Of a DNA stretch of 64,000 nt, positions 19,841 through 53,005 are shown one piece after another; positions within the stretch are counted from its first letter, which is position 1; the number at the start of each line of letters is the position of its first letter. The notes under the pieces were generated by a model, which was not told where the DNA came from, searched no databases, and saw nothing but the letters and a program-made list of their open reading frames with translations. Source of the stretch: Allosalinactinospora lopnorensis. Lineage in GTDB: Bacteria; Actinomycetota; Actinomycetes; Streptosporangiales; Streptosporangiaceae. The stretch spans positions 1 through 64,000 of the forward strand of contig NZ_LAJC01000017.1 in NCBI RefSeq assembly GCF_000981225.1. The letters run 5' to 3'. The translations under genes and the position numbers were made by a program.

Positions 19841-19843
19841 GGC

Positions 19844-21037
19844 TCAAATCTCCGACTCAGCGAACTCGATGTCGATAGTGCGATCCAACAGGCTGCTGAG
19901 CAGAGATGCACGAACCTCACGTAGACGGGCAGCCTCCGCGCGGGTCGCCTTCAACGCAGACTCCATCGCTTCAAGTTCCATCGCCATCTCGCGTTGGCGG
20001 GCGATCGAAGGTAGGCGCACGGCCATGCCCTTAACCCGCTTGGCGCTGATGTGCTTGATGTTGGTGCCCCCCGCAACGTCGAGGAAGGCCCTGGACTCGT
20101 AAGCCCACATGCTCCAGTGGAAGGCGAACTCAGGGATGCAGACCCCTTCCAGCGCCCGGAGACGGAGCAAGGTCATCTGGGTACAGACAGGCCCTGGCAA
20201 CTCGTCTCGCCACATGGCGGGCATCCCGACCGCATTCGCGCTTGCGCTGCCCTCGGACACCACGACGTCGCCGTAGCGGAGGCCGAACTTCTCGCGCTCT
20301 GCTGGGTCGTAGTTCATCTCCAACACGTCGGTCAGGTCGAGCGTCCCATAGCCGACGTTCGCGGAACGGAGGTAGGGCGTCATGTACGGGCCGGTCGCCC
20401 TGTCGGGTGTCCGGCGTACGCCGGTGGAGAAGTCGAAGGCGTGCTCGGCCCTCACGGCTTCAACCGAGTCGTCCGTGATGAGGTCGGCTCGTCGGCGACG
20501 CAGAACCGCTGTCAGCGCCCCCGCTTCGGCGTCGAGTGCGGTGATCTGCTCGTCGACCGCGCCGATCACCTCGACGATCCGCTCCTGTGTCGGCAGCGGA
20601 GGCAAAGCGAACGGGATGGCACGGAATGAAGCGTCAGAGATTGTCTTGCGGCGCAAGACTGTTCCCGAGGCACGGTTCTGCATCTCGTCCCAGAACGCTG
20701 GCGTCTGGAAGTACAGTCCCAGGAACTCCGGGAGAGCTCTCTGGTCCACCTCATAGGTGAGGAATACACCGGAGACGTAGGTGCCGTCATGCTCTGCCCG
20801 CGCGACGCCTGCAGGAGCCTCGAACGCCGTGATCGTGCGGAGCACGACGTCGTTCTCTCGCACCGTGTTCAGCGTCGTGTACTTCGAGACACCGCCGGTG
20901 AATGGCTCCTTCTCACCTAGGCCGCGCCCGTACATCTGGACACTGACTGCGGGGTAGGTGACGCCATCCTCCACAACTACCTTGCGGCGCACACGGGTCA
21001 GAACGTCACCGAGGGTGATTCGCCGCCAGTCACTCAT
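19844..21037 (-). CDS. hsdS: Type I restriction-modification specificity subunit
   Basis: 397 residues from MSDWRRITLGDVLTRV, whose ATG overlaps the hsdM stop as ATGAGTGA. Two target-recognition domains are each followed by a conserved helix: IPFALPPLPTQERIVEVIGA and VDEQITALDAEAGAL for the first, VRLPSIARQREMAMELEAME for the second. That repeat symmetry is the HsdS hallmark. The two TRDs define a bipartite recognition sequence that cannot be predicted by eye. The C-terminal helix ends just before hsdR. Confidence 0.9.
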   Translation of the reverse strand: MSDWRRITLGDVLTRVRRKVVVEDGVTYPAVSVQMYGRGLGEKEPFTGGVSKYTTLNTVRENDVVLRTITAFEAPAGVARAEHDGTYVSGVFLTYEVDQRALPEFLGLYFQTPAFWDEMQNRASGTVLRRKTISDASFRAIPFALPPLPTQERIVEVIGAVDEQITALDAEAGALTAVLRRRRADLITDDSVEAVRAEHAFDFSTGVRRTPDRATGPYMTPYLRSANVGYGTLDLTDVLEMNYDPAEREKFGLRYGDVVVSEGSASANAVGMPAMWRDELPGPVCTQMTLLRLRALEGVCIPEFAFHWSMWAYESRAFLDVAGGTNIKHISAKRVKGMAVRLPSIARQREMAMELEAMESALKATRAEAARLREVRASLLSSLLDRTIDIEFAESEI

Positions 21038-22604: not shown

Positions 22605-22695
22605 CAGTCGGGGGTTTCCTTGCTCGTCAAAGGGGGACGACCCGAAGGCCCTGGTGGTCTGGTTCTTGCTCAACGTAATTCAGGCATGCCCGGCA

Positions 22696-23752: not shown

Positions 23753-24868
23753 GTGGAGGAAGAGCTGCGGGCTCAGGCGGCGATGCTCACGGTCGCCCGA
23801 GAGTCACGTGGCCTCACCCAGGGGGAAGTGGCCGCTGCGATGGCCGACGCCGCCGGGAATGCAGGAACGGCCGTGTCCCAGGGCTATGTCAGCAAGGCCG
23901 AGGCGGGACGCCTGCATGTCACCGGGGAACGCCTCCAGCTCTACGCCGCCGCGCTGGGGTACCCGCCCGAGCTACTGTGCCTGGACCCGCAGGTCCACGG
24001 GGTGGGTGTGGGCTTGATCCACCACCGCAAACGCGCCTCCCTACCCGTCAGTGCCGTGCGTCGCATCCACGCACAGATCGCTCTGACGCGGATCCAGCTC
24101 GACGGGTTGGTGACAGCAACGCGGGGAGTTCCCCCTGCGTCGTGCTTCCCCCACGTCGAACTGAGTGATCTGACGACGCCAAAGGACGCGGCGCGTCTTC
24201 TGCGTACGGAATGGGGCTTACCTGAGGGGCCTGTGCCCGACCTTGTGCGTGCAGCCGAAGAGGCGGGAGCATGGATCGTCTTGCGAGACCTCGAAAGTGA
24301 CCTGCTCGATGCAGTCAGTCAGCGAACCGGGCAGAATGCACCTCTGTTCTTGCTGAACGATCGGGCTCCCGGGGACCGCTGCCGGTTCAGCGTCGCTCAC
24401 GAGATCGGCCACATCGTACTGCATACGCAACCTGGGGCAAGTTCGGAGCAGGAGAAGCAGGCCGACGCCTTTGCCGCAGAGTTCCTCATGCCGGCCAAGG
24501 ATATTCGCGGGGACTTCTCCGGTACCGTCACCATCTCGAAACTGGCGGACCTCAAACGCAAGTGGCGGGTGTCCATGGCGGCACTTCTTCGCCGCGCACA
24601 GGCACTGAGCGCCGTCACCGAATGGCAGTACCGCAACATCATGGTCGAAATGTCTACCCTGGGATACCGAACCGCAGAACCTGTGGACCTCGACCTGGAA
24701 CGCCCCTGCCGTATATCGCGCCTCCTCAATAACTTGCGGAAGGAGTACGGTTTCACCGACCAGCAGGCAGCAGAGCACAGCTACCTGCTGCGGGAGGAAT
24801 TCGTGCGCCTCTACCGCGACGGTATCGATCCACTCGCTCTGAACACTTCGTCGAAGGTGAGGCCATGA
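23753..24868 (+). CDS. XRE-type HTH plus ImmA/IrrE metallopeptidase
   Basis: 371 residues. Residues 10-70 form an XRE helix-turn-helix (ARESRGLTQGEVAAAMADAA, GYVSKAEAGRLHVTGERLQL). Residues about 160-290 are an ImmA/IrrE domain: FLLNDRAPGDRCRFSVAHEI then GHIVLHTQ contains the zinc motif HEIGH, and EKQADAFAAEFLMPAKDI supplies the third ligand Glu and the conserved FAAEFLMP block. Such proteins cleave or sense a repressor, as ImmA does for ICEBs1 and IrrE/DdrO in Deinococcus. The GTG start gives MEEELRAQAAM. The stop overlaps the next ATG as ATGA, so it is coupled to the TGT-like protein. A control role for that partner or for the surrounding element is inferred. Confidence 0.85.
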   Translation: MEEELRAQAAMLTVARESRGLTQGEVAAAMADAAGNAGTAVSQGYVSKAEAGRLHVTGERLQLYAAALGYPPELLCLDPQVHGVGVGLIHHRKRASLPVSAVRRIHAQIALTRIQLDGLVTATRGVPPASCFPHVELSDLTTPKDAARLLRTEWGLPEGPVPDLVRAAEEAGAWIVLRDLESDLLDAVSQRTGQNAPLFLLNDRAPGDRCRFSVAHEIGHIVLHTQPGASSEQEKQADAFAAEFLMPAKDIRGDFSGTVTISKLADLKRKWRVSMAALLRRAQALSAVTEWQYRNIMVEMSTLGYRTAEPVDLDLERPCRISRLLNNLRKEYGFTDQQAAEHSYLLREEFVRLYRDGIDPLALNTSSKVRP

Positions 24869-26723: not shown

Positions 26724-27041
26724 TCAGTGCGTGTGTGCTAGCACGTCGTCAGCCAAGTAGTCCAGCACCGGACGAAGCAGGGGCCACAGCGGATCCTCAC
26801 CGGTGATGCGGTGCCAGCGCCGCCGCTGGCCGGGAACCGGCGCCAACGCCTCCACCGCCCCCAACTCCATCAGCGCCTTCATGGGCTGGCGGTAGACGCT
26901 GGGCTGGACACCGTTGTGGGCGGCCAAGTCGCCCATGCACACTCCGTCAGCATCTGCCTCTACCAGCGCAAGCATCAGTTCCGCCCTATAGCGGTTACCG
27001 AAGAGCTTCCGGGAAGCCTGACGCATAGCCTCTAGAGACAT
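26724..27041 (-). CDS. Winged-helix (ArsR-like) transcriptional regulator
   Basis: 105 residues. KLFGNRYRAELMLALVEADA and GVCMGDLAAHNGVQPSVYRQ then PMKALMELGAVEAL fit the helix-turn-helix and wing of ArsR/MarR-like regulators. The C-terminus DPLWPLLRPVLDYLADDVL is a dimerisation helix. The start codon lies inside one arm of a perfect palindrome, and TTGACT (-35) and AATAAT (-10) precede it closely enough that the transcript would start at or next to the ATG. This suggests a leaderless, autorepressed mRNA. It heads a two-gene minus-strand operon. Confidence 0.72.
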   Translation of the reverse strand: MSLEAMRQASRKLFGNRYRAELMLALVEADADGVCMGDLAAHNGVQPSVYRQPMKALMELGAVEALAPVPGQRRRWHRITGEDPLWPLLRPVLDYLADDVLAHTH

Positions 27042-27063
27042 GATTAATTATTGGTTAATCATG
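27039..27063. promoter_or_regulatory. Perfect 9-base inverted repeat operator at the winged-helix start codon
   Basis: Arms CATGATTAA (27039-27047) and TTAATCATG (27055-27063) flank a seven-base spacer. The repeat covers the -10 element AATAAT of the minus-strand gene, with TTGACT 18 bases before it. Binding of the dimeric regulator here would block its own transcription. Confidence 0.68.
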
Positions 27064-27254
27064 TCTTATAAGTCAACTTCTCAAGTACTTCGAACGGTGA
27101 TGGAGCGCTCAGCCGACACGAGCGCGGACTCGGGGGCGGATTCGTTTGGGGTCTGGTTGGCACGCCTGCGGTGCCTCGCCCTCACTCAGCCGTCACCAGC
27201 CCTCTGCGACCCGGGATCCGGTCTCTGCTTAGCGCTTCTCAGCCGTGATGATTG
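27064..27254. other. Short stretch without a supported gene
   Basis: It contains the minus-strand promoter at its left edge. Otherwise I see no coding signal before the integrase stump. Confidence 0.4.
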
Positions 27255-27605
27255 CGCGCACCAACGGCCACCTGCTCCGCGCCTAAAGTCGACCGGCCCG
27301 AGCACAACAGGCGCGCACACTGCGACTTCTACACCCCGAAAGACTCCTCGAAGGGCCAGCTCCTGGAGGCCAAGGCCAACCTCCAGCGCATGCTGGCCTC
27401 GATCCCGCTGAGCGACGACGAACGCGCTGCGGTGGACGAAGGGCAGTCTGCTTTGGACAAGCTGCTCGACCGGCTCGTCGATGTCCCAACGCCATCAGGT
27501 CAGACACCGCGAGAGCTCGTTGCTCCCACCTCAGCGACACTCCTGCCCATCGTCGACATCACCAAGGACAGGCAGGACGGACTTGACAATCCTGATTCCA
27601 CATAA
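27255..27605 (+). pseudogene. C-terminal stump of a site-specific integrase-type recombinase
   Basis: CDFYTPKDSSKGQLLEAKAN followed by LQRMLASIPLSDDERAAVDE and LLDRLVDVPTPSGQTPREL is the characteristic tail found after the catalytic domain of large actinobacterial tyrosine recombinases/transposition proteins. The catalytic R...H-R...Y part is not upstream in any frame. It is a leftover of the enzyme that may once have moved this island. The family assignment rests on pattern recall. Confidence 0.45.
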
Positions 27606-27850
27606 GACTCAAGATGCTCAAACGAAAGATGTATGGGCGCCACGCCTGACCTGCTGCGGAAGCGTGTCCTGCTTGACGCCTGATCGGAGGAGAGCGAGGA
27701 TTCACCGAATCCGTGCCAGAACCGGTATTCACGTGTTGCCGGCACGTAGCGTCTGTGTGCAGTTGGCTCTCGTACGTGCGCCCCGCCGGGTTTCGGGCAC
27801 TGAGCTTGCCACGATTGCCAGAAGGTCCTGATTTACAGTTCGCTGGGGGC

Positions 27851-29112
27851 ATGCCGTTGCCGTCGCGCGGGAGCAGCCCGGAGCGCATTGCAGCCCTGCG
27901 GGAAGCAGCAGGGCTCTCCAAAGCCGAGCTCGCGCGGCGCATCGGAGTGTCTCCACGCATGCTTTCTTTCTACGAGCAGGGACGAAGTACCCCCCTCCGC
28001 AGCGTCTCCAGCAATTGGCTGAAGCGCTGCGGTGCCCAGTCCAGGAGCTTATCGGAATCCGACGCGGTGAAGAGCACCTCCTCGACCTGCGGATGGCCGC
28101 AGGACTCACTCTGGAACAGGCGGTGGAGAGACTGCGCCGCGCAACTCCCGGACGTGAACCGACACTCTCAGCATCACAGCTCTCCGCCCTAGAACAGGGG
28201 CAGCCCATCGGCCGCACCGGGAACAACGCTTGGGAGGCAGAGGAATATCTTATTGGCGCGCTGGCCAGGCTCTATGAGGTGCCGACGCGCATGGTCGTCG
28301 ACGCCTGGATGCGCACCCGCCCCGCCGATCCTGCACCCGTGCGGCCCCGTCTCCAGAGCCCGCCGACCCCAAACGCGAGCAGTCGGAAGACGTGGGAGTC
28401 GCTGAACGAGCGGCAGCAGACCTACCTCGGCGAGATCCTGCGGGATGAGCGAATGACCGAGACCGAAGTGTGGATGCGCCGAGTCCACCATATGCCTGCA
28501 TCCAGCCCTGCCCAATGGCGCAAACTACCGCTGGCACTGCACGAGCCAACACGCCTCGTCGGCTACACCCGGCTGCAGCAGCGCCTAAGCAGAAGCGGCG
28601 TCCACGACCCTGGTGCCGGCTCGACCGTTCAGGCGCTTGAGCGCCGCGGCCTGCTGACCACTAGTACAGATGTGGTTCACCATCCGGCTGTCGGTCAAGT
28701 GCGGCGCACCTTGGTGGAGTTGACCCGCCGAGGGCGGGCCGCCGCCCGCGCCGGGCTGGGGGAGCCGGCTGAGCCGAAACCGCCGACCCCACTGCTCTCG
28801 GAGTGGCTGTGGAGCGTTGTGGCCCGAGTGGCCCGCGCCGGCCCAGACGGACTCCAACGGGACGAACTCTCAGGCCGGGCCCCCTTCTTTGTGGGAGTCG
28901 GCTACAAGAACAAGCCTAAGGGCCGCCCGAGTCGAGGTTTCATCGACGATGTGCCGGTGCTCGCCGACGACGGCAGCCACGTCATCGACTACCGATGGCG
29001 GCTCACCCCGCTCGGCTGGCGGCACGTCGCCACCTATCTGCAGGAGTACCAAAAGCGCTATCCGCAAGTCGACACCACGGGACTTGCCGATCTTGCCCGG
29101 AACACTCAATAG
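27851..29112 (+). CDS. Large HTH regulator upstream of the pPIWI-RE island, frameshifted in a C-run
   Basis: The N-terminal XRE domain reads PERIAALREAAGLSKAELAR and RIGVSPRMLSFYEQGRSTP. A run of six C's at 27990-27995 then shifts the frame. One added C restores QRLQQLAEALRCPVQELIG, the normal end of an XRE domain, and a second HTH-like unit LRMAAGLTLEQAVERLRRAT follows. The C-terminal 200 residues contain winged-helix-like segments (GSTVQALERRGLLTTSTDVV, TLVELTRRGRAAARAGL) and end LADLARNTQ. Joined length is about 420 residues. It ends 60 bases before the REase gene on the same strand, so it may control the island. The target is unknown. Confidence 0.66.
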
Positions 29113-29172
29113 CCGAACTTCATTACCAAAGAGCCGGGCGAATGTCAGCGGCGCCCCCTAGTCTCTGGGCGC

Positions 29173-30399
29173 ATGGGTAATGCGACGAACAACGAAGTTC
29201 GGCCCGAGTGGGTGAAGTCCCTGGTGGCGCGCGCTGTGTTGCGGGCTGCCGATGCGGTCACCACCCCCGGGGTTGCACCGGCTGCTCGCCTGGACACTCT
29301 GATGGAATGCCACGGCGCTTTGCTAGCCGCACGCGGCCCTGGCAGCCCGCTGTCCTTCGCCGACTTCCGCAATCAGATCCGTGGCGATCCCTCCTGCCTC
29401 CTGCCGCCTGGCGTGGACGGCTGGGATATCGACGGGTTGCGCATGGTCGACGCCGATGGACACGTCACCGAGGACGCCTTCGACATCGACGCAGAGCAGC
29501 GCCTGGTACTCGGGGTCCTGCGCCGGAGCAACCGCGGTACCGGTCTGATCAGCGGATCCGATCTGGAGGACGAAGTCGCTCAGGAGACGGCTTTCGCGCA
29601 GCTGAGCAAGACCGGAGACCAGAAGAGCTACGAAGACGGCCGCAATGCGCTGATCCGCCACCCCTCAGGACCAGTAAGCATGCTGAGCGAACTGCAACTT
29701 CCTCCCCTCATCTCTGATCTCTACGGAGACATCGCATATGCCTCGGCCTACCGTGACTGGTGGTTCGCCTGCCCGGTGTGCCAATGGCCGATGCGCGTCG
29801 CCTTGCGCCGGGAGTCGAGCCGCGTGATTGGCGCGGTCGCCTGCTGGCACAAGCCTCACCAGCGCATCGGAGCGGCTTATCACTTCCGTCCCACCGAGGG
29901 ACCCGAACCCCCCGAACTGCAGCCAGAACCGCCCGCAGCTCCACCGGGGCCTCACGAAGCCATCCTGTGGCCCGATCTGCAGACGGTGCCGCCCGCCCAG
30001 CCGATCGAGGGGCACAAGGCACTGGCTCGCGGCGTATGGCGCTACACCTGCGTCCCCGGGCTGGCCGAGATCGCCCTACGTGACCGCCTCGTCGAGCGTG
30101 GTCTGCAAGTGCAGCTGTGGCCTTCACTGGACGCCTATGACCTGGCCGTGCACATCGAGAATCGCAAGGAGACGCTTCGCGTCGACGTCAAGGACTACAC
30201 CTCTGCTACTGCACTTTCCGAGCTTATCCACGCCCAGGAGGGCGACCGCGGGGGCGCGCAGTGGCTGGTGGTCCCCGATCACCGGGCAAGCCAGGTGCCG
30301 CTGCTGAGCGGGGTCGGGCAACGCTACGGCCTCCAGGTGGCTACGGCTTCCGCCTTCGGCGCGATGGTCTGTGAGCGAGCGGGGGTGGCCTGGTCATGA
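29173..30399 (+). CDS. pPIWI-RE island restriction-endonuclease-fold protein
   Basis: 408 residues. The C-terminal third contains LRDRLVERGLQVQLWPSLDA then YDLAVHIENRKETLRVDVKD, a PD-(D/E)xK arrangement with Asp in YDLAV and DVK as the second motif (about residues 322-341). VACWHKPH and WFACPVCQWPMR suggest a zinc knuckle in the middle. The TGA overlaps the helicase ATG as ATGA. In the three-gene islands described by comparative genomics, a REase of this kind accompanies a DinG-like helicase and the pPIWI-RE protein, which is exactly the order here. Cleavage of invading nucleic acid is predicted; experimental proof for this family is not known to me. Confidence 0.75.
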   Translation: MGNATNNEVRPEWVKSLVARAVLRAADAVTTPGVAPAARLDTLMECHGALLAARGPGSPLSFADFRNQIRGDPSCLLPPGVDGWDIDGLRMVDADGHVTEDAFDIDAEQRLVLGVLRRSNRGTGLISGSDLEDEVAQETAFAQLSKTGDQKSYEDGRNALIRHPSGPVSMLSELQLPPLISDLYGDIAYASAYRDWWFACPVCQWPMRVALRRESSRVIGAVACWHKPHQRIGAAYHFRPTEGPEPPELQPEPPAAPPGPHEAILWPDLQTVPPAQPIEGHKALARGVWRYTCVPGLAEIALRDRLVERGLQVQLWPSLDAYDLAVHIENRKETLRVDVKDYTSATALSELIHAQEGDRGGAQWLVVPDHRASQVPLLSGVGQRYGLQVATASAFGAMVCERAGVAWS

Positions 30400-33300
30400 A
30401 CACCCCTTCGCGGACCGAATTCGCGCTTTGCGCGTCCCTGGCGCTTGCCGCCCACTACTTCCCCGAGACCACGCCGGAGGGCGGGGCCCCCGCCGGCCCC
30501 TTCGACCGGGCGGCATACCTGCTGTCCGGGCAGTTCCAGGCATGGCCGCAGTGGGAGAAGCTGACGAGCGAAGAGCGCCGCCGCATCGTCGACGTCTTCG
30601 CCAACGCCCCCGGCGGACTCGCCGACCCGCGCCGATTCTTCAGCGCTGCCCGCGCCATGCTCGCCTCGCTCGCTGAGGAACCTCCCGGCCAGGCGCAGCA
30701 GCTGCGTACCTTCAATGCCGCAGGAGGCGACCCCTTCACCGCCCGAGCAGCCGTCCCGCACGTCGGTGATGACCTGCTGAGCTACGTCGACCGCCAACTC
30801 CAACCCTTCCGCCGGCCCAGCGCACGCCCCAAACCTCCCGAGTTCGCCGGGCCTGGAACCTGGTCAACCGGGGAAATCTATGTGTCCCAGAGCGGGCGCG
30901 TGCACGGCCGAACCACGATCCCCACCTACCCGGGATACACCGAGCCCTTCGGCCACGAGAGCCTCCCCCGCGCTGAGACCGCCGAGCCGCTCGAGGAACT
31001 GCCAATCCCCACACGCGAACTGCTCTACCTGGCCGAGCGCATCGAAAGCCGCCGCCCCGAGGACCAGCGCTATCTGCGCACGACTCTGAACGAACTGCTG
31101 GACGCGCTGAACACCTCGGACTCCATCAGCCCGCAGGAGGCCCTGCGGATGGCCGCGGGCGGGCTGGAGATCTTCCACGCACCGACCGGGACGGGCAAAA
31201 GCATCCTGGTGCGGGTCGTGGCGGCCTGGATGGCCCAGCAGGGGCACCGAGTGGCCATCGTGCTGCCCGACATCAAGGCGTGCTTGAAGACCACCCGTGA
31301 AATCCAAGCGGATCTGCGCATCCTGCGAGAGCTCGGAGACATCGAGCACGAGACCGGATGCGCGCACCTGATGTCCTCCAGCGGTATGCAGGAGCGCGCG
31401 CTTAAACTGTCCCGCCTCATCAGCGAAGACCCCGACGACCCCGGAGAATGGGGCGAACACGGCGACCGCGACATCGACCCGCTGGCCTACGGGTGCGCCC
31501 AACGGCCGCTCATGGAATCCAGTGCCCCCTATCCACCGGGCCGTGAGCCCTGCATGTCACTGCATCGCCAAGGCGTTGGCGCCGCAGCCTGCCCCTGGAT
31601 CCCCACCTGCGGCAAGTTCGCGCCCGTCTATGAGGCCTGCTCGGCACACGTCGTCGTGACCAACCACTTCGCCTTCCTCAAAGGCAACCTGGGTATCGGC
31701 CTCAACCTTGACGGCCGCCCAGTCCGCGGCGTCAGTGTCGCCGAGTTCACGCTGCGCACCTGCCACGCAGTGTTCGTTGACGAGGTCGATCAGTTCCAGT
31801 CACGGGCGGTGGACTGCTGCGCCGGCGAGGTGGTACTGCACTCGCGACGGCACTGGACGTCGGCCCCTCAGGAGATGGACACCGACGCCAAACGGCTGTC
31901 GATCGCCGAGGAGGCCGAACTGCTGACCGCGATCGGGCAAGTGCGCCTCATGGCCGAGTTCCTCCTGCTCGCGGTTAGCCGCAACGCCCTGAGCTTGGAA
32001 GCCATCGACGACGCACGCGTCCGAGAACGCGTTCCCGACCGGACCGGAGTGCGCTGGCACCTCGCACGGGGCCGTGACCGCCAATTAGCCCGCCTGCTCT
32101 GGCCCAACGAGGAGGAAGCCGCAGGGGAGACGGACCTGCCGAGCGACATCGCCGCGCGTTTGCAGCGCTTCATGCCCGTCCGCTACGGGGACGAACCCGC
32201 GGCGACCGCCAACGACGAGCGCGCGGTGAGCCGAGCCCTGGAAGCGTTGGTCGCCCCGCGAGGCGAGTCCGTGCTCAACGAGGTCAAGATCCGCCTCCAT
32301 GAGCTGCTGGCGCCGCGGATCAGTGACCCGCAGCGCCGCGCCCAGACCGTCCACCTACTCATGGCACGGGCGATCATGGGCGAGCTGGACGAAGCGTTGT
32401 CCCATCTACGCACCCGCGCCCAACAGCACCGCCCCACTGGATTGCGTTCGGCCCAGCGCATCTCCGAAACCCTCAGCCGCAGCGCCGTCACCGACACTCT
32501 TCCCCTGGGACTGCTGGGGCGATCCCTCACCGGCTACCGCGTGACCGGCCTCGAAGACCGTGAACGCAGCGCCACACTGGTCGCGCAAAGCCTCGCCGGC
32601 GACCCGCACACCTTTACCGCCGAGCTTGGGGGACTCGTCGCACTGAGCCTTGCCGGGGCCGAAAGGCCGGTTATGGGTCTCTCAGCCACTGCGTTCTTCC
32701 CTCAGGCCGTGCGCGAGCACGTGGCGGCACCGGTGCGCTGGTGGATGACCGATGCCCAGGCGCGCTCGATCCTAGCCCGGCGACACCGCATCGACTACGG
32801 GGAGGGACACCCTCTCTTCGGCGAGCCGATCAAGATCTCCGGACAGCACCCCAGCCGCAAGAAGAACGCCTCGATCGAACTCGGCACCCAGCTCTACGAC
32901 CGACACATCCACGGCGAGCTACAGCGCCAGCGCGCCAAAGACCCCGACCGCGCCCACGTACTGGTCGTGGCCAATTCCTACGAGCAGTGCGCCTGGCTCG
33001 CCCGCGGCATTTCTCAGGCGGGCAATTACCGCGAGGGACTCTGTGTGGCCGTCCGCGACGGCGATACCGACCACACTGACCTGCCTCGGGAGAATATCGC
33101 CGCGCGTCTGACCGCAGAGCAGTTCGAGGACTTCCCCCAGCACGGCAGCATCCTGGTCGTTCCCCTGGCGCTGATCGCCCGCGGACTGAACATCGTCGTC
33201 GGCACCCGCTCCGCCGTGCGCTCGATCTATCTGTGCGTGCGGCCCCTTTCGCTATTCACCGATCCCGCACAGATGTATGCCAGTGTCAATGCAGCCGGGA

Positions 33301-33683
33301 TGGCTGCCCTCGCCAAAGCCAAGGCGAACTCTATGGACCCCGGGGATGCATTGCAACAGGCGCGTAACGCCGCACAAGTGCGGCTCGACTTGATCCTGAG
33401 GGCCTCCCCACAGTTCACCGCCATGCCCCATGTGCTGCAAGAGGAAGTGGTTGCCGGCGTCATCGTCGACTTGATTCAACTGGCTGGGCGAGCCCGCCGC
33501 GGGGGCACCGAAGCCATCCTCCACTTGGTCGACTACGCCTTCCACGAGGACACCTGGAGCTCCGATTTGGAGACGATCCTGGGCCGCATTAGCGAACAGT
33601 GGACCTCGGAAGTGCGCGAGCAGATGAACGGTCTCTACGGACAGGCGCTGGACGCCTTCCTCTCCTACGCCGGGCTCGCCTGA
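30396..33683 (+). CDS. DinG-like superfamily 2 helicase of the pPIWI-RE island
   Basis: 1,095 residues. Walker A is FHAPTGTGKSILVRVVAAW (Lys about 270). Four cysteines, GCAQ, EPC, AACPW and PTCGK (about residues 367-406), form the Fe-S cluster site typical of XPD/DinG helicases. Walker B is VFVDEVDQF (about 460-468), later motifs are GLSATAFFP (about 762) and LIQLAGRARRGG (motif VI, about 1026-1038). The N-terminal 250 residues are specific to the island. It would unwind duplexes from a single-stranded 5' end for the pPIWI-RE/REase pair. Codon use and length look intact, with no frameshift. Confidence 0.86.
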   Translation: MNTPSRTEFALCASLALAAHYFPETTPEGGAPAGPFDRAAYLLSGQFQAWPQWEKLTSEERRRIVDVFANAPGGLADPRRFFSAARAMLASLAEEPPGQAQQLRTFNAAGGDPFTARAAVPHVGDDLLSYVDRQLQPFRRPSARPKPPEFAGPGTWSTGEIYVSQSGRVHGRTTIPTYPGYTEPFGHESLPRAETAEPLEELPIPTRELLYLAERIESRRPEDQRYLRTTLNELLDALNTSDSISPQEALRMAAGGLEIFHAPTGTGKSILVRVVAAWMAQQGHRVAIVLPDIKACLKTTREIQADLRILRELGDIEHETGCAHLMSSSGMQERALKLSRLISEDPDDPGEWGEHGDRDIDPLAYGCAQRPLMESSAPYPPGREPCMSLHRQGVGAAACPWIPTCGKFAPVYEACSAHVVVTNHFAFLKGNLGIGLNLDGRPVRGVSVAEFTLRTCHAVFVDEVDQFQSRAVDCCAGEVVLHSRRHWTSAPQEMDTDAKRLSIAEEAELLTAIGQVRLMAEFLLLAVSRNALSLEAIDDARVRERVPDRTGVRWHLARGRDRQLARLLWPNEEEAAGETDLPSDIAARLQRFMPVRYGDEPAATANDERAVSRALEALVAPRGESVLNEVKIRLHELLAPRISDPQRRAQTVHLLMARAIMGELDEALSHLRTRAQQHRPTGLRSAQRISETLSRSAVTDTLPLGLLGRSLTGYRVTGLEDRERSATLVAQSLAGDPHTFTAELGGLVALSLAGAERPVMGLSATAFFPQAVREHVAAPVRWWMTDAQARSILARRHRIDYGEGHPLFGEPIKISGQHPSRKKNASIELGTQLYDRHIHGELQRQRAKDPDRAHVLVVANSYEQCAWLARGISQAGNYREGLCVAVRDGDTDHTDLPRENIAARLTAEQFEDFPQHGSILVVPLALIARGLNIVVGTRSAVRSIYLCVRPLSLFTDPAQMYASVNAAGMAALAKAKANSMDPGDALQQARNAAQVRLDLILRASPQFTAMPHVLQEEVVAGVIVDLIQLAGRARRGGTEAILHLVDYAFHEDTWSSDLETILGRISEQWTSEVREQMNGLYGQALDAFLSYAGLA

Positions 33684-34159
33684 GGGCCCGGTGCGGCGGT
33701 GGCCCCGCGAGGCTCGGCCGAACAGGGTAGAGCGCTCTCGCAGGGCCACGCAGAACCCGCAGTCGAATCCGGTGCTGGCCTGGAAGGGAGAACGGCACCT
33801 GCCGTTCCGCGACGCACCGAGAGGGATCGTCTCGCGATCAGTCGATCGTTGCCGGATCAGTCTTTGAGGTGGAGCTGATAGCCACGAGTGCGGACCCTGC
33901 TGCCAGCCAATTCGTCGAAGTCCGCCGCACGGGACGTGGGCGCCTGATAGGACATTATGCACCAGACCCCACCCACGCCCCCGGGCAACTCTGCGCGGGC
34001 GGGCCTCACTACGCGCGCGGCAGCCGCCCTTCCGGGCTGTCGCCCTCAGGGCCCACCGCCAATTAGGCCCGCGGAGCCGCCAATAAGCCCGACGTGGCCG
34101 ATCTGAGCATCCGAGCCACGCCGCCTTCGGGCGCCGTAGGGAACCCTCGTCAAAGGAGA
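33684..34159. other. Spacer between helicase and pPIWI-RE genes with a short direct repeat
   Basis: No supported gene in about 475 bases. Two near-identical segments, CCGCCAATTAGGCCCG (34056-34071) and CCGCCAATAAGCCCG (34077-34091), lie about 70-100 bases before the pPIWI-RE start and could be a regulatory repeat. The spacer is unusual given the tight coupling of the two preceding genes. Confidence 0.4.
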
Positions 34160-36951
34160 ATGAGTACCGTGCACGACCACCCCCCAGAGCCGGGCAAGTA
34201 CCTGCGCACGCTGGCCTACCGCTGCACCCCCGAGTTACTGGGGGATACCGCGGTCCGCCTCCGCCGGTTGGACGCCGAGACCACCGCGCTGTGGCGTGCG
34301 TTCACCGTCCAGTGCCGGCGGCGCTTCGGCAAGCAGGAAGCTCAGGCCCCCTACAGCATCGCCACAACCGTGCTGCAGGCGATTACCGGCGGCTATGTGT
34401 CCTTCGAGCCGACGGGTGAGGCCCCTTTCTTGGTGTCGCGCGTGCCTATCGATAACGGCCTGCTGTGCAAAGCCTTCGCACTGACCTACGGACTGGCTCT
34501 GGGCGGCTCGATCGAGGCGATCGATCTGCGTCGGCCCCCCGAGCTCGCCGAGCGCATCGCTCAGACTCCCGAGCAGGACCTCGCCTTGAGGGACCACCTG
34601 GACAGCGGAAACTCCACCCAGCCGAACGCGCCGAACTGGCTGTACAGGAGCGTGAGCTGGGGACTGGCCGAGCGTCTCTCCTCGCGGCCCTTCATCCTGT
34701 CCAACGGACGCGAAATCACGCTGCGCCCCGACACCACGGGTGGCCTGGTGGCCGTGGACGATCCTTGGGAAAACGATCGCGGCGGCCGCTATGCGCTCTG
34801 CCGCACCTCGGTGCTCTTGAAGACGCTGCCGAACATCCATCATCCGGTGCTGCTGCTGAATGCGCGCGTCTCGCGCATCTCCCAGTCGCTGATCTTCAGC
34901 TCCACCGCCTTGGCCGTCCAGTCCTATGAGGGGCGCCCCATCCTGCAGATCGATCTCAACGGGCGCGGCGGCGCGAAGACCATTCCACGCCAGGCTCTGC
35001 AGGCGCTGGGCCGATTGGAGCTGGACTACTCGATCCTGCGCGCCATCGACGAACGCTCCCAGAACGAACAGCGGCAATACAAGCAGGCCAAAGCCGACAA
35101 CGAGAAGCCGCGGTTCTCCTCCGAACATCCCGGCCGGATCTGGCCCATCCCCAAGAAGAACCACCAGCATCCCATCGGCACCGGCGTCGGCATGCACCAT
35201 CTGCGGCTGCTGCACAGCCATGCAAGAGAGGTTTTCGGGGATGCGGCTGCACCCCTACGGCTGCGCCAGACGGCGATGACGATGCCTCGACGACCGACCG
35301 ATCCCGAAACGATCTCGAGTGCCGAACTGCAGCGCCGTAAAGCCGAGCGCGAGCAGTCGGGCAGTAAGGAACCGCTGCGTCGGCGCGGCAGCCTCTTCCC
35401 TTCCCCGGAGTCGCTGTGGGCATCGGTCGAGGACACCGGATTCAAACAGTTGCGCATCGTCTGTCTCTGGTACCGGGATGAGACACGCCAGCGCATGCTG
35501 CAGACCCTGGCGCGCGCTTCGGACTCGACCCCGAAGGACTCGACTTCCGGGACGGCCGCGAGTTGGACCTCCATCAGGGTCGCATCCTGGCCGTCTTCCA
35601 CAACGCGCCCGACTTTCTGCGGCCCGGCCCCAACCCCGACCGCTCCGAAATGCTGGGGCCTGCGGAATCCTCGCTGACACCGGAGGAGGACACCCTCATC
35701 GGCGCCTGGTGCGAGACCGAGATGCCCGATGCCGAGGACTTCCCCGACTGGGACCCCCAACAGCTTGATGCCGTTGACGCCAAACCGCAGACGAAGTCGA
35801 TCCTGGCCCGGCGCGATATCGCATCGCAGTACCTGAAGGGCTACGACAGCGACGGTGTGATCACGCCGCAGGCCGAGGACCACCCCGCCCAGATGGCGCT
35901 ACTCGACCTCTTCCGTTCTCTCGGGGCCACTGACGAACGGATCGCCAACGCCGTGGAGGGAACGAGCACATTCGCGGTCGAGAAGCTGGCCCACATCGGC
36001 GTCCACGTGCGCCAGCAGAACCGGCGCCCTGGCGAACGCGGTGAGCCCAAGGTCGTCATCACCGCCACCGCGCTGGTCCCTCCGCACACCGCATCACGCA
36101 CCTGGTCCCTGCTCGGATGGAGCAGCACCGACCCGGTGTGGAAGCCCTACCACGCGGCCCAAAACGCCTTCCACGCGAGTAACTATCCTCCGCCCTCCGT
36201 CGGTGAGAAGAGCTACCGGGCGAAGTGGGACGAGGCCGCCCAGACAGTCGAGCAGGCGCTGACCGACTTCGTCGATGTTCAGGACGGTCTGCCTTACACG
36301 GTCACCGTCGATAGCAATGCCGCACGCCGGATGTGGGACGGCCTGCAGAACATGCGGCTCGGCACCCAGCCTGCGCACACCGGGTCCTCCGACAGGGGCA
36401 GCCGCCTGCGACTGCCCGGCGAACGGCTCGGCACAGATGCCCCGGTGGCAGTCATACGCCTCAACACCGACGACAAGGAAGTCCCCCGGCCTATCGGGGT
36501 CATCCACCGCGGTAAGAGGCCGGGCGCTACGCCGGTGGACCAGGAGACCTCGACGCTGCTATTCGAAATCGACACCGACTTCGGTACGCCGGCATGGCTG
36601 CTGAGCAACGTTCCACGCAACTACGACGGCAACAGCGGCAGCGGGCGCCGGCTGGGATCCAAGCGCACTCGCTGGGAGGTGAACCGGTCGGTGTATTCGG
36701 ACGAGCCCGCGCAGCGACGTAAGGGGGAGATGAGCCAGAATTTCTACGGCATGACCGCCACTGAAATCTTGCCCATCGGAGGACCCTCGGACCAGGCCCG
36801 TGAGGCTCTGGCGGCGATGACCGCCCGCCTATGCCATCAGACCATGTTCTGGTCCGACCGCGCCCGCTACCCAGTGCCCCTGCACGCCGCTCAGCAGATG
36901 GACGACGACCACCCACAGCATCGACGCGAAGCCCTCCAGGACGAGCAGTGA
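34160..36951 (+). CDS. pPIWI-RE family protein (Argonaute/PIWI-related), frameshifted once
   Basis: The two frames join at about 35517, where one base is missing between LQTLARA and FGLDPEGLDF, giving about 930 residues. The C-terminal block LLSNVPRNYDG, VYSDEPAQRRKGEMSQNFYG then MTATEILPIGG, ending CHQTMFWSDRARYPVPLHAA and QQMDDDHPQHR, is the hallmark end of pPIWI-RE/RNaseH_pPIWI_RE proteins. The N-terminus (YLRTLAYRCTPELLG) matches their X-type domain. The conserved Arg and Glu that name the family cannot be fixed by eye. It is predicted to bind a guide:target duplex and direct the helicase and nuclease. ATG is listed; the GTG nine bases on (34169) has better spacing from AAGGAG. Confidence 0.82.
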
Positions 36952-36954
36952 ATG

Positions 36955-37064
36955 CCCATTCGGCCGCCATCAGGGCCGACGCCGCGCCTGCTTCGCCTGC
37001 TCTGGTCCTACGATGGCGAGGCCTGGGTGGCCCTGACGGTCGGCGAATCGTACGGCGATGGTGG
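36955..37064. other. Spacer between the pPIWI-RE gene and a convergent helicase remnant
   Basis: I see no gene or clear hairpin in this stretch. Confidence 0.4.
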
Positions 37065-38464
37065 TCAGCGTGAGGTGAGCGCGATGGTCAGAAAGACCGT
37101 GTCGTGGTCAGAGAGCTGGCTCGTTCCGATCTGAGACGTGCCGGCGCAGACGTCGGTGCTCAGCCGTGCGTAGACGTGGGGAGCGGGGTCGTCGTCCAAG
37201 ACGAGGGCGAGCGATATCTCGGACGATCCAGCCGAGGAAGACGCCTTGGTGTCGGACTCGGACAGAATTCGCGTCCGACCTATCGAGCGGGGTCTCAGCG
37301 GACAACTGAGCGAAGTGACCGGCGTTGCCAGCATGGTGAAGGCCGCGCAAAGGGCAAGTGAAGTGCCATTATCGCTGAGAATCGCAGCCTGCGCGATGCA
37401 CGGGCTACGACGTTCCACGCTGCGGATAGGGAGACGCGCGGTGTCAGGGTCCGTGATCCTGATGATCTCGTTGGCCGGAGCGTATGACCGCGGTGCGTGC
37501 CGGGCGGTCGGGAAACCGCTGGGCGATGGCCGTGACGCGGAAGGCGGAGAAGCGGGCAATTGGAGCCAAAGGCCAATCCCAAGAGCCGAGCTGGTGGCCG
37601 GCGAGCGTGTCACTAAGAAGATCCTGGGCGGCCTGTTCGAGGAGGCGTTGGTCGGGGTGTCGATAATCTCCTCGGCAAGGAGAGCCAGGAGCTGGATGTC
37701 CAATCCCTCGACCGACCCGGACAGTGTTCCGTCAGCGGGCTCGTCCAAGTCCAGTGCGCTGAGATTCTGTCCGTTCGCAGGCCAATGACCAAGGCGGGCG
37801 CGGACCAGCTCGCGGTAGAGGCAGGCGAGCGTGGAAATGACCGGTTCGATGTTTCACGGTTCATGTTCCCCGGCGGCGGAGCCTTCGGGCGGTGTTGGCA
37901 TCCTTTGCGATCAGGATGACGTGGCCCTCGGTCTCTAGCCCGGCGCGGCCAGCCCGTCCGACAGTGTTCCAGAAATCGCGGATGCTGACCTGGTTGCTTG
38001 GGCCGCGCCAGGTGTCAGGGACGAGGACTGTCTTGGTCGGCAGGTTCATCCCCTGGGACAAGGTGCAGGTGGCGCACAGAACCCGAAGTGCGCCACTGCG
38101 GTAGGCCGCGCTCGAAACAGTGGCGGACGGCTTGGGGAACCTCGGAGTGGTGGTAGGCGTAGCCTTGCAGGACCATGGCGGCCAGTTCGTGGTCCTCACC
38201 GATATGTCGCCCGATCTCAGCAGAAGCTTCCCGGCGCCGCTGTAAGACGTCGGAGCTGAAGGAATCATCCGAGACGCCGAATTCTGGAGCGCCTTCCTGC
38301 TTCAGGGCTGTGCCCAGGGCATTAGCGGCAGCACGGGCCATGATCTTGGTGGGCTGGGCGATGAGCACGGGGCCGAGCCGATCGAAGTGCAGCGCCAGGG
38401 CAGTAGCGACGTCCTTGGGCGCATTCGGGAAGGGCTTGGTCCGCTTCAGGTGCCGAGTCAGCAC
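37065..38464 (-). pseudogene. Ski2-like DEAD/DEAH helicase, decayed C-terminal half
   Basis: The minus strand reads VATALALHFDRLGPVLIAQP then TKIMARAAANAL. After a frameshift near 38110 it continues ALRVLCATCTLSQGMNLPTK and TVLVPDTW, then VSIRDFWNTVGRAGRAGLET, motifs V and VI of Ski2-type helicases. Further on, ELVRARLGHWPANGQNLSAL and LDIQLLALLAEEIIDTPTN match the family tail in yet another frame. The N-terminal ATPase half is missing. Several frames and loss of Walker motifs make it non-functional. Confidence 0.68.
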
Positions 38465-42094: not shown

Positions 42095-44218
42095 CTACTT
42101 GACAACCTGGTCGACGGGCTTGCCTGCGAGGTGGGTGATACCTCGCTTCTTCAGCAGGGACAGCACCTGCTGCTTTTCCTGTGCGCTACCGCAGAGGATG
42201 CGAGACGGTGCTTCGGCGCCCAGGAGATCGAGGCCGTTGCGGAACATGATCTCGTTGTCGGAGGCATTGAAGTCGGCCATTTTCATCGGGTCCTTGGTCA
42301 ACCCGTTCATGGAGTGGTGGCCTTCGGGATTGAGCGCTCCGAAGTGGTCGCTGTTGTAGCCGTAGATCGAGGTGTTGTTGAGTAGGCGAGGCGGGTCATC
42401 CCAGACCAGGCGTGCGCCCGGGCCGATCGATGAGGTTTTCCGGACGCGGGTGAAGACGGAGTTCGCGCCTCCCGACATCTTGTCGGATCCTTCGCTCATT
42501 CCTTTACCGGATGTGATCCCCATGGCGCTGCGGCGCTCGGTCGAGGCGAGAACGCCTGTGGCCAGGAGTTCTGCGAGATTTCCTCCGCTGACCTCGTGGA
42601 CGAGGCTCCTGCCCTTCCAGGCCGACTCGATCGCGGGCTGCTGGTTGCCCACATCGAAGCGGCCCCAGGTGAGCCATCCGCCCGAGGCTCGGGGGGCCGG
42701 GTCGTATCCTGGGCTGGCGGCCAGCCCAGCTCCGTCGGTGTGTCCGGTCGCCTGAGCGACCGCCTCTCGGATCACCTTTACCTGCGCGGGAAGGCAGGCG
42801 GCCGAGGCTTCGATTTGCCATTCCTTGGCGAGCTTGGTCAGCCCGTCCTGGTCGAGCCCTACCGCCTGGTGTGCGTGGGTGTGGAACAGCTCTTGGAGCT
42901 GGGCCTCTTCGAGTGCGTTGGCTTGGTTGAGGGCTTTTTTGATCTTCGGATTGCTACCGAGTTTCTGCGCCTCGATGTTGTTCTTCAGGTAGGTCCATTC
43001 GCCTTCGGCGTGTGTCATCGCTCGGTTGACCAGGTGTAGGTCGCCGAGCCGGCGGACCATCTCCTCGCCGTTCCCAGCGCCCTGCGGTGCATGCACCTCC
43101 AGTTGACCGCGCAGGGTGTATTCGTGTGTGGAAGGGTCGTTGAGGCTGTAGGGGCGGTAGACAGCGCTCCATCCTTCGCCCATGTCGATGAGGTATTCCT
43201 TCCCCCATGCCTTGGAGCGGCTCTTGCCGTCCCAGGAGGTCGTGCCAGTGGTTGTGTCGATTTGGGGGTGGATGCGGCTGGCGTCACGGATACTGGCCGA
43301 CAGCCCCGAGCCCGGGTCCTCTTCGGGCGCTGGCACCATCTTGGTGACAGTGGTCGTGCCGCTGTGCTCATAGGGGGAGACGAAGGGAACCTTGCCGCCT
43401 TCGTCGTAGGGCTGCGCGCCTGCGGTGTCGATCTTGTGGCTGATGTCGCCGAGCCAGTTGCTGTAGTAGGCGGCCATGGTCAGTTCGGCCTGGGTGCTCT
43501 CCGGGTTGTTCCATACCTCCTGGATTGCCGTCTGCGCCGTCGCCAGGTATTCCTTGGTGTGCTGGGGGATCGGGACCTCGTTGTTCTTGAGCTTGTGATT
43601 CACGCTCTTGGCGACCTTGGCGACGAGCTCGTAGAGCTGCTTGTCCTCGTCGACGGGCAGCCGTCCAGTGACCTCCTCCTCAACCTGTGTGGGAACGAGT
43701 GTCGGCTCGTTCACGGCGAGTGCCTCCAAGAGCTTGTCCTCGGCTTGTTCGTTGAGTGTGGTCAGCAGCACCTCGCGCGGGTCTTTCCCCTCAGGATCGG
43801 TATAGGAGACGAGCGTGGCGGTGGAGTCGACCAGGTCGGCGCCCCCCACCAGCACCGGGACTCCGGCCGCGGCGCCTTCGGGGGGTGTCTGGGGAATCGG
43901 GGTAACCACATCGGGCGGCGGCTCGATGTACAGATCGGCGAGCGCTTCCGCGTTCTCCTCGGCCGCCGGTGCCGCGTCCTCTGGTTCCTGCTGGAATGCT
44001 TGCTCTTCGACCTCGGAGCCACTCGACTCGTCGCTTTCCTCCTCAAGGAGGGGAATGTCCTCGGCGCCGGATGCGCCCGCTGCGGTGGCGACACCTTCGT
44101 CAAAGTGCTCTGCGGATTCGCCGGAAGGAGGAACCGGATCTGACTCTTCTGGCTGGATGGCCGCTGCGGTCGGGGCGGTCTGGTAGGTCTGGTGCGTTGT
44201 TTTTCCTCCGCTGCCCAT
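42095..44218 (-). CDS. Large tagged protein with ADP-ribosyltransferase-like C-terminus
   Basis: 707 residues. It opens with MGSGGKTTHQTYQTAPTA, nearly identical to the opening of the upstream 845-residue protein, then a Glu/Pro/Ser-rich disordered stretch to about residue 120 and a helical middle. The C-terminal 170 residues contain SLVHEVSGGNLAELLATGVL with ASTERRSAMGI, then SGGANSVFTRVRK and FNASDNEIMFRNGLDLLG. This order (H.S...NL..L...G.L.S, then a Ser/Thr strand, then N-E near the end) resembles ART/DarT-like toxin folds seen in phage head and polymorphic toxin proteins. No signal peptide or membrane segment is seen. An injected or transferred effector is the working idea; a phage-type structural protein is the alternative. 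Confidence 0.55.
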   Translation of the reverse strand: MGSGGKTTHQTYQTAPTAAAIQPEESDPVPPSGESAEHFDEGVATAAGASGAEDIPLLEEESDESSGSEVEEQAFQQEPEDAAPAAEENAEALADLYIEPPPDVVTPIPQTPPEGAAAGVPVLVGGADLVDSTATLVSYTDPEGKDPREVLLTTLNEQAEDKLLEALAVNEPTLVPTQVEEEVTGRLPVDEDKQLYELVAKVAKSVNHKLKNNEVPIPQHTKEYLATAQTAIQEVWNNPESTQAELTMAAYYSNWLGDISHKIDTAGAQPYDEGGKVPFVSPYEHSGTTTVTKMVPAPEEDPGSGLSASIRDASRIHPQIDTTTGTTSWDGKSRSKAWGKEYLIDMGEGWSAVYRPYSLNDPSTHEYTLRGQLEVHAPQGAGNGEEMVRRLGDLHLVNRAMTHAEGEWTYLKNNIEAQKLGSNPKIKKALNQANALEEAQLQELFHTHAHQAVGLDQDGLTKLAKEWQIEASAACLPAQVKVIREAVAQATGHTDGAGLAASPGYDPAPRASGGWLTWGRFDVGNQQPAIESAWKGRSLVHEVSGGNLAELLATGVLASTERRSAMGITSGKGMSEGSDKMSGGANSVFTRVRKTSSIGPGARLVWDDPPRLLNNTSIYGYNSDHFGALNPEGHHSMNGLTKDPMKMADFNASDNEIMFRNGLDLLGAEAPSRILCGSAQEKQQVLSLLKKRGITHLAGKPVDQVVK

Positions 44219-44220
44219 GC

Positions 44221-52894: not shown

Positions 52895-53005
52895 ACCTCT
52901 TCCCCATGTCGTGGACTCCATGGCAGGAGGAAAGAGTGAAAAGCGCAGAGCTGTGACAGAGCGGGCGGGCCGAACTTCGAAGGCCCTGCCGCAGGCATCG
53001 GGAGG

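What the first reader, a model, noticed from the sequence alone, without database searches (positions are those of the whole stretch)
29173..36951. Complete three-gene pPIWI-RE island (REase, DinG-like helicase, pPIWI-RE)
Order, overlaps and motifs fit the islands predicted by comparative genomics to act in inter-genomic conflict: a PD-(D/E)xK nuclease with DVK, an Fe-S DinG-like helicase with four Cys, and a PIWI-related protein with the MTATEI...HQTMFW...DHP tail. A dual-HTH regulator sits directly upstream and hsdMSR is close by, so this is a defence island. The biochemical function of this family is little explored, and guide type and target are open.
Basis: partly seen in the sequence, partly recalled or inferred. 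Interest (0 to 1): 0.78.

Follow-up and report, generated by a model that had tools for sequence, protein, structure and literature searches.

The report
Damage-linked bacterial PIWI gene island
A known but little-studied set of bacterial genes (a DNA cutter, a helicase and an Argonaute-like protein) is here, broken in two places as sequenced, and in its relatives it sits behind a switch of the kind used by DNA-repair genes, which hints at when it acts.

Summary
The REase - DinG - pPIWI-RE triad is real (29173-36951): profiles, signature residues and 33 related actinobacterial loci agree. It is not complete as read: pPIWI-RE lies in two frames (break near 35512), 476 bp after dinG, and the dual-HTH gene upstream is split too (near 27990). 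Assembly indels are likelier than decay, because ordinary genes elsewhere in this assembly are split the same way; not settled. In relatives the HTH gene is a regular fourth component. New here: the short HTH-REase gap carries the published RecA-NDp/PafBC DNA-damage promoter (tTGTCRgtg-N8-TannnT), usually 8 bases before the REase start: 13 of 30 loci exact, 29 of 30 with the core, and the window keeps the core. In eight relatives' genomes (chosen with an exact site at this operon) exact sites number 113 against 0 for the reversed pattern; some precede recA, ruvC, uvrD, dnaX and glycosylase genes. The operon is therefore predicted to be DNA-damage-inducible, which fits the ciprofloxacin phenotype reported for P. 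stutzeri PIWI-RE. The locus is a member of a known kind; its four-gene form with a damage promoter is a variant found in no paper searched.

The parts
27815..27844 (+). Promoter region of the HTH gene: -35-like TTGCCA kept; the palindrome of relatives (ATGAAGTCTTCAT in the spacer) and the -10 are diverged here
   Evidence: palindrome within 2 mismatches in 27 of 30 loci, 5 mismatches in the window
27851..27994 (+). Dual-HTH (XRE) regulator, N-terminal part, first frame
   Evidence: 73% identical to L046 over 48 aa; in one frame with the C part in 31 of 31 relatives that have it
27997..29112 (+). Dual-HTH regulator, rest of the protein, second frame (break at a C run near 27990)
   Evidence: 68-69% identical to L046-L048; PF13560 0.00068, below cut-off
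29142..29164 (+). RecA-NDp / PafBC-type promoter: core TGTCR-N11-TANNNT kept, 2 mismatches to the full consensus, 8 bases between it and the REase start codon
29173..30399 (+). REase with pPIWI-RE-associated PD-(D/E)xK domain; zinc ribbon C200/C203/C224/H229, D338-x-K340
   Evidence: PF18154 1.2e-26; PADLOC REase, PprRE and, weakly (0.00042), pPIWI_RE_Y; alignment A4
30396..33683 (+). DinG-like helicase, 1095 aa; Walker A GTGK 265-268, DEVD 462-465, invariant C322, C367, C386, C399, C405
   Evidence: PADLOC PprDinG 3.9e-100; 16-row alignment A5
33684..34159 (.). 476-bp stretch between dinG and pPIWI-RE, one match (itself) in the genome; in the three nearest relatives the two genes are 15 bp apart
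34160..35512 (+). pPIWI-RE, N-terminal part (X domain and start of MID), first frame
   Evidence: PF13111 7.5e-31; frame change placed at 35512 by codon usage
35513..36951 (+). pPIWI-RE, C-terminal part (rest of MID, RNase H/PIWI), second frame; catalytic Asp codons at 36310 and 36577, signature R at 36670, E at 36763
   Evidence: PF18157 5.1e-07, PF13032 6.6e-65; alignment A2

Best explanation
This is an actinobacterial clade of the pPIWI-RE (PADLOC 'Ppr') system with a fourth regular gene, a dual-HTH regulator. Shown here: gene content, order, domains, kept catalytic residues, and a RecA-NDp/PafBC-type promoter just before the REase start. Inferred: when single-stranded DNA builds up (DNA damage, stalled forks, incoming phage or plasmid DNA), PafBC turns on a near-leaderless REase-dinG-pPIWI mRNA; the HTH protein controls its own gene through a palindrome inside its promoter. 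pPIWI-RE then holds a short RNA (or DNA) guide in an Argonaute-like cleft and binds an RNA-DNA hybrid or exposed strand, DinG unwinds or moves along it, and the REase cuts. The broken frames in this window are more likely assembly indels than loss of the genes.
For: Profiles and residues. Four-gene unit: HTH found in 31 of 33 loci, before the REase in 30; among 341 genomes of the family all 13 full-length HTH matches lie beside a DinG match on the same contig. Promoter: in 30 HTH-REase gaps 13 exact, 8 with one, 8 with two, 1 with three mismatches to the published consensus; of random 95-bp windows of the same loci 0.26% reach one mismatch or fewer, of shuffled gaps 0.04%; core in 29 of 30 plus the window; motif positions 1.67 bits, spacer 0.67, upstream 0.31, over 18 representatives. 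Genome-wide exact sites: 15 in Crossiella and 98 in 7 other genomes, reversed-pattern control 0 in each of the 8 (these 8 were chosen for an exact site at this operon, which is counted); genes behind sites include recA, ruvC, uvrD, dnaX, three kinds of DNA glycosylase, dnaN paralogues and the proteasomal ATPase. The window's genome has a tandem-WYL ORF of the fused-PafBC kind. The intact orthologue L046 is predicted to have an Argonaute fold (mean pLDDT 83; best Z 17.6 to T. thermophilus Argonaute, 542 residues, rmsd 5.5). Deleting PIWI-RE sensitises P. stutzeri to ciprofloxacin (PMC10991935).
Against: No expression data. The window's own site has two mismatches to the full consensus, and its genome has only 1 exact site (control 0), or 14 sites at up to one mismatch against 7 in the control. 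Of 16 triads fetched without the HTH gene 14 lack the core, as does one of three more distant HTH-type loci (L123); the other two (L121, L122) have the core but no site within two mismatches of the full consensus. A motif search in S. venezuelae was reported as not finding the PafBC motif (PMC9380542). ClgR has also been said to recognise this promoter type (PMC5656591). Guide, target and defence role were not tested for this clade.
Confidence: 0.6

Rival explanations
1. The classical proposal: an R-loop-directed restriction system aimed at phages, plasmids and conjugative elements, whose expression has nothing special to do with DNA damage. pPIWI-RE senses the RNA-DNA hybrid, DinG unwinds, REase cuts.
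For: Burroughs et al. 2013 (PMC3702460); patchy distribution, 69 of 341 genomes of the family; window DinG groups with Streptomyces, not with rows of its own family; hsdMSR next door.
Against: The promoter type shared with recA, ruvC and uvrD is unexpected for a system that only waits for invaders, though phage infection also makes ssDNA. The ciprofloxacin phenotype was seen without phage.
Confidence: 0.3
2. A recently inactivated (decaying) island: HTH and pPIWI-RE are true pseudogenes in this strain, leaving REase and DinG as remnants.
For: Two frame breaks, a unique 476-bp stretch, a lost HTH palindrome and altered -10, two mismatches in the damage promoter; detector events are denser on this contig (12 in 83 kb, against 10 in 200 kb of ten other contigs); the DinG end branch is long (0.33).
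Against: Split tRNA synthetase, MurJ, AMP-binding enzyme, glycosyltransferase and HsdR genes in the same assembly; catalytic and signature residues kept; private changes at otherwise invariant columns are in the range of other long branches (window 20; L068 67, L064 26, L066 17, L060 15, L065 13).
Confidence: 0.3
3. A chromosomal replication-stress or repair complex rather than defence: guided nuclease plus DinG clears R-loops or stalled forks during damage.
For: Damage-type promoter, DinG family, ciprofloxacin and filamentation phenotype in P. stutzeri.
Against: Accessory and patchy: 13 of 341 family genomes carry this form; apparent horizontal spread; a REase is an odd part for a repair complex (inference).
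Confidence: 0.25
4. Programmed frameshifting joins the two pPIWI-RE halves on purpose.
For: The break joins two conserved halves without loss of conserved sequence.
Against: One frame in 31 of 32 relatives with both halves; the exception L076 has breaks in REase and DinG as well. No slippery heptamer is apparent by eye at 35500-35520.
Confidence: 0.02

Closest known systems
pPIWI-RE three-gene system (Burroughs, Iyer and Aravind 2013, PMC3702460)
   Same: Gene order REase-DinG-pPIWI-RE, X/MID/PIWI domains, R and E signature, zinc-ribbon REase, Fe-S type DinG
   Different: A separate dual-HTH gene upstream as a regular fourth part (the sections read describe HTH domains fused to the REase), a RecA-NDp-type promoter, and, in this assembly, two split genes and a 476-bp stretch between dinG and pPIWI-RE
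P. stutzeri PIWI-RE (Huang et al. 2022, PMC10991935)
   Same: Family, DinG neighbour; two catalytic Asp, with the second Asp 29 residues before the signature R as in L046 (D610 and R639 in the paper)
   Different: HTH and promoter not described in the parts read; the paper measured activity, here only sequence
PADLOC Ppr models (PprRE, PprDinG, PprPIWI)
   Same: All three models match
   Different: The scanned part of the HTH protein (28015-29109) has no PADLOC match
PafBC / RecA-NDp regulon (PMC5656591, PMC8223512, PMC6789036, PMC11804915)
   Same: Promoter consensus; in relatives the same motif lies a few bases before the start codons of several repair genes
   Different: No PIWI- or Argonaute-type regulon member was found in the papers searched

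Membership tests
pPIWI-RE protein family | PIWI-type RNase H domain with conserved Arg and Glu | tested here: met
   PF13032 6.6e-65; R in 27 of 27 and E in 26 of 27 rows with the domain, both in the window
pPIWI-RE protein family | X and MID domains before the RNase H domain | tested here: met
   PF13111 7.5e-31 and PF18157 5.1e-07, on the two halves
pPIWI-RE protein family | One continuous open reading frame | tested here: not met
   Two frames in the window, one frame in 31 of 32 relatives; lowers the claim of a working copy, not the homology
pPIWI-RE protein family | Catalytic Asp pair (present in a subset of the family) | tested here: met
   Both D in the window; 26 of 27 rows at each position
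pPIWI-RE three-gene system | Order REase, DinG helicase, pPIWI-RE on one strand | tested here: met
pPIWI-RE three-gene system | Overlapping or very close gene ends | tested here: inconclusive
   REase/dinG overlap 4 bp; dinG/pPIWI 476 bp apart in the window, 15 bp in the three nearest relatives
pPIWI-RE three-gene system | RNA-guided recognition of DNA-RNA hybrids and restriction of invading DNA | not testable with these tools
   needs bench work
PafBC / RecA-NDp regulon | tTGTCRgtg-N8-TannnT promoter before the operon | tested here: met
   Upper-case core in the window and in 29 of 30 relatives; 13 of 30 exact; the window has 2 mismatches to the full consensus
PafBC / RecA-NDp regulon | PafB and PafC homologues in the genome | tested here: inconclusive
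   Two WYL domains in one 723-aa open frame, as in natural PafBC fusions; orthology not tested further
PafBC / RecA-NDp regulon | PafBC-dependent induction by DNA damage | not testable with these tools
   needs RNA data

The most novel reading that the evidence does not exclude
The actinobacterial pPIWI-RE operon is a DNA-damage-response effector: a guided Argonaute-like nuclease made only when PafBC senses ssDNA, so that the cell adds a guided DNA-cleaving complex to its recA/ruvC/uvrD response, aimed at foreign replicons or at failing replication forks, with the dual-HTH protein as a second brake.
Probability: 0.4. Interest if true: 0.82.

Novelty: new variant of a known kind. Interest (0 to 1): 0.6.

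Why it matters
What pPIWI-RE systems are for is open: the 2013 proposal says anti-invader restriction, the one experimental paper found here saw a replication-stress phenotype. A promoter type shared with recA, ruvC and uvrD gives a direct, cheap test of when the system is made, names a regulator to delete, and suggests growth conditions in which guides could be recovered.

Tried and rejected
Programmed frameshift: rejected, because relatives have one frame. Copies of the 476-bp stretch elsewhere in the genome: none found; Rfam on 27000-38000: two sub-threshold matches only. Close DNA relatives on plasmids: none by megablast; 15 plasmid records encode distant DinG relatives, all under 60% identity. 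Phage records and viral contigs: no relative of the C-terminal half. Solved structures by sequence: none for REase or DinG, no credible one for pPIWI-RE; for the HTH protein the matches lie within residues 3-111, and its model gives no Foldseek match at E <= 0.001, the best rows being HTH regulators. SOS (LexA-type) boxes as the damage switch, sought only as GAAC-N4-GTTC: upstream of one of 30 HTH-type loci (L067) and near one other triad (L115), so not the rule. PMC7641849 matched 'PIWI-RE' only as 'Piwi-related'. Relaxed selection as a sign of decay: not seen. My first N-terminal query for pPIWI-RE was one base off frame and its N-half rows there are void; one search replaces them. One search ran before the fetched loci were readable under the names used and had wrong frames; one search replaces it. 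The first detector script found nothing because of a fault in its scoring; one search replaces it. I looked for pafB/pafC beside the proteasomal ATPase gene of Crossiella and did not see them in the stretch fetched. The palindrome before the HTH gene overlaps a possible earlier ATG; by the spacings it would be in frame at most loci but out of frame at eight, and at two loci (L066, L070) both arms change together, so I read it as an operator, with less certainty than the damage promoter.
Full report
What is there. The REase (29173-30399) matches PF18154 and three PADLOC models; the helicase (30396-33683) matches PADLOC PprDinG at 3.9e-100 over nearly its whole length although it has no Pfam-A hit; the third gene matches PF13111 (X), PF18157 (MID) and PF13032 (RNase H). 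NCBIfam gives only a far sub-cut-off reverse-gyrase match to the helicase. Signature residues are in place: REase C200, C203, C224, H229 and D338-x-K340, invariant in 16 rows; DinG Walker A, DEVD and the cysteines 322, 367, 386, 399, 405, invariant in 16 rows; pPIWI-RE catalytic Asp pair and the R and E that name the family.

The pPIWI-RE gene is not one frame: its first half runs from 34160 to about 35512 and its second half, in another frame, to 36951. A codon-usage Viterbi scan places the change at 35512 without homology. The HTH gene upstream is split as well (near 27990, at a C run; the scan did not find this one). dinG and pPIWI-RE are 476 bp apart, whereas in the three nearest relatives the gap is 15 bp; the extra DNA has no second copy in the genome and no Rfam match above threshold.

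Error or decay. The scan gave 22 frame changes in 283 kb of this assembly (window 10; rest of its contig 2 in 19 kb; ten other contigs 10 in 200 kb) and 6 in 200 kb of a two-contig relative of the same family. The scan is rough and its events include false ones; by my reading of the printed frames 17 of the 22, and 2 of the 6 in the control, behave like a lost base. Pfam shows several as splits of ordinary genes: tRNA synthetase (profile 6-204, then 208-291), AMP-binding enzyme (8-113, then 153-384), MurJ (66-192, then 197-405), a glycosyltransferase (N and C domains), and HsdR. A candidate at window 58483 (NB-ARC in one frame, TPR in the next) and one at L079 17186 are inconclusive; at window 51803 neither frame had a Pfam match; for L080 3885 only one frame was scanned; the remaining events were not tested by homology. 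Constraint on the four proteins looks normal: 20 private changes at otherwise invariant columns in the window, against 67 (L068), 26 (L064), 17 (L066), 15 (L060) and 13 (L065) in other long branches among 18 taxa; sixteen partial, broken or near-duplicate loci were left out. I therefore favour assembly indels, but the contig has an excess of events and the regulatory sites of this copy have drifted, so real, recent loss is not excluded.

Relatives. One scan of the genome collection gave 33 loci, all actinobacterial by their titles. The HTH gene was found in 31, each time in one frame; it lies just before the REase in 30; pPIWI-RE is in one frame in 31 of the 32 loci that have both halves. Exceptions: L062 shows no HTH, REase or most of DinG within its 10-kb flank; L073 starts inside the locus; L078 ends inside pPIWI-RE; L070 (DinG, and the last part of pPIWI-RE) and L076 (REase, DinG, pPIWI-RE) have their own breaks; L061 is an in-frame fusion of the HTH protein to the C-terminal part of pPIWI-RE without REase and DinG. 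In 341 genomes of the window's family, 69 match PF13032 at E <= 1e-10, 30 match the DinG profile at E <= 1e-15, and 13 have a full-length HTH match, each with a DinG match beside it on the same contig (each search scored only the best few candidates per genome). The DinG tree of 30 rows puts the window next to three Streptomyces loci (100/100), away from the Streptosporangiaceae rows; the tool warns that the window's branch is long (0.33) and such placements are less sure. No relative of the C-terminal half was found in phage records or viral contigs.

The promoter. The HTH-REase gap is 31-97 bp long in 30 relatives. Reading these gaps I recognised, from memory, the actinobacterial RecA-independent damage promoter; the consensus 'tTGTCRgtg - 8 nt - TannnT' is printed in PMC5656591 (passage). 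Scored against it, 13 of 30 gaps are exact, 8 have one mismatch, 8 two, 1 three; the window has two. Of 20,000 random 95-bp windows of the same loci, which include the true sites, 0.13% are exact and 0.26% within one mismatch; of 60,000 gaps shuffled in two-base blocks none was exact and 0.04% were within one; the 95 bases upstream of the HTH gene are a negative control (29 of 30 at four or more mismatches). The loci are not independent; among 18 representatives the motif positions carry 1.67 bits, the spacer 0.67 and the 20 bases upstream 0.31. The upper-case core is in 29 of 30, in the window (29143-29164), in two of three more distant HTH-type loci (L121, L122, not L123; none of the three is within two mismatches of the full consensus), and in two of 16 triads that lack the HTH gene. 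In 23 of 30 loci and the window 8 bases lie between the site and the assigned REase start codon, so the mRNA should be nearly leaderless (inference).

Is it the damage regulon in these genomes? I counted exact sites in 8 genomes, all chosen because their own REase site is exact: 15 in the 10.7-Mb Crossiella genome and 98 in seven others (20, 15, 15, 3, 13, 2 and 30), with zero for the reversed pattern in each. I scanned with Pfam the downstream ORFs of 10 of the 15 Crossiella sites and of 10 of the 30 loci made from the other 98 sites; the second ten were picked after seeing their first residues, several because they looked like repair proteins, so they are not a random sample. Crossiella, 10 scanned: proteasomal ATPase, dnaN paralogue, methylpurine glycosylase, RecF/SMC-like ATPase, PhoH-PIN, DUF1963, glyoxalase, and three without a match. 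Others, 10 scanned: recA, ruvC, uvrD, dnaX, a methyladenine glycosylase, an AlkZ-like glycosylase, a dnaN paralogue, two SWIM-domain proteins and a sigma factor. In Actinomadura roseirufa the only two exact sites precede the AlkZ-like glycosylase and this REase. Against: the window's own genome has one exact site (control 0), and 14 at up to one mismatch with 7 in the control, and a search in S. venezuelae was reported negative (PMC9380542, passage). The window's genome does hold a tandem-WYL 723-aa frame of the fused-PafBC kind.

The HTH gene's own promoter. In 27 of 30 loci a palindrome (ATGAAGWCTTCAT, up to two mismatches) lies 17-18 bp before the assigned HTH start, mostly behind a -35-like TTGCNA; L060, L063 and L067 lack it. 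In the window the TTGCCA is kept and the palindrome is lost. Autoregulation is my inference. The predicted structure of the HTH protein (mean pLDDT 76, pTM 0.55) is helical in its N-terminal part and mixed helix and strand after it; no PDB match reached E 0.001.

Structure. The intact orthologue L046, folded from 28 aligned rows (26 relatives and the window's two halves), has mean pLDDT 83 and pTM 0.84. Foldseek ranks R. sphaeroides Argonaute with RNA guide and DNA target first (E 2.7e-14); VIA-align gives Z 17.6, rmsd 5.5, to T. thermophilus Argonaute over 542 residues, spanning model residues 7-918. So the X region probably takes part in an Argonaute-like layout; which domain it equals was not resolved.

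Literature seen. PMC3702460: abstract, the whole section on the bacterial family, and passages. PMC10991935: abstract, part 1 of the results, the deletion section and passages. PMC6789036, PMC8223512, PMC11804915, PMC5656591, PMC9380542, PMC7641849: passages. Searches for pPIWI-RE, PIWI-RE, PafBC, the motif and combinations listed no paper that, by title or abstract start or by the passages read, links PIWI-RE to PafBC or RecA-NDp; the library holds open-licence PMC papers only and long lists were cut, so a paper elsewhere may exist. That E. coli DinG is damage-inducible is named in PMC10991935 (passage).

Verdict. The locus is a member of a known family, damaged in this assembly. The new content is the four-gene form and its damage-type promoter, which turns an open question about function into a direct expression test.

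Noticed in passing
L061:8678-11308: Catenulispora rubra: one 876-aa frame joins the dual-HTH regulator to the C-terminal MID/PIWI part of pPIWI-RE; REase and DinG were not found in the locus, and the first catalytic Asp reads as Glu in the translation (by eye). Fusion by deletion, or an assembly artefact.
   Followed up: partly
window 16767-22673: hsdM, hsdS, hsdR on the minus strand; hsdR is split in two frames near 18155.
   Followed up: partly
window 8921-11203: Class I (W/Y) tRNA synthetase-like gene split near 9667, beside aminotransferase and luciferase-like genes; perhaps the edge of a biosynthetic cluster.
   Followed up: partly
window 42095-52921: Block of minus-strand genes with a ParB-like and a Replication-relaxation protein and two large ORFs (707 and 845 aa) without Pfam or PHROG match: perhaps an integrated mobile element next to the island.
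   Followed up: partly
window 23753-24868: HTH plus ImmA/IrrE-type metallopeptidase gene between hsdM and the island.
   Followed up: no
L048, L046, L058 genomes (G365, G371, G366): Three Streptomyces genomes hold 20, 30 and 15 exact RecA-NDp sites with none for the reversed control, one of them before recA in S. glomeratus; this differs from a published note that the motif is not conserved in S. venezuelae.
   Followed up: partly
L105, L106: Two pPIWI-RE triads without the HTH gene also carry the damage-promoter core, starting 28 bp before the expected REase start; 14 other such triads do not.
   Followed up: partly
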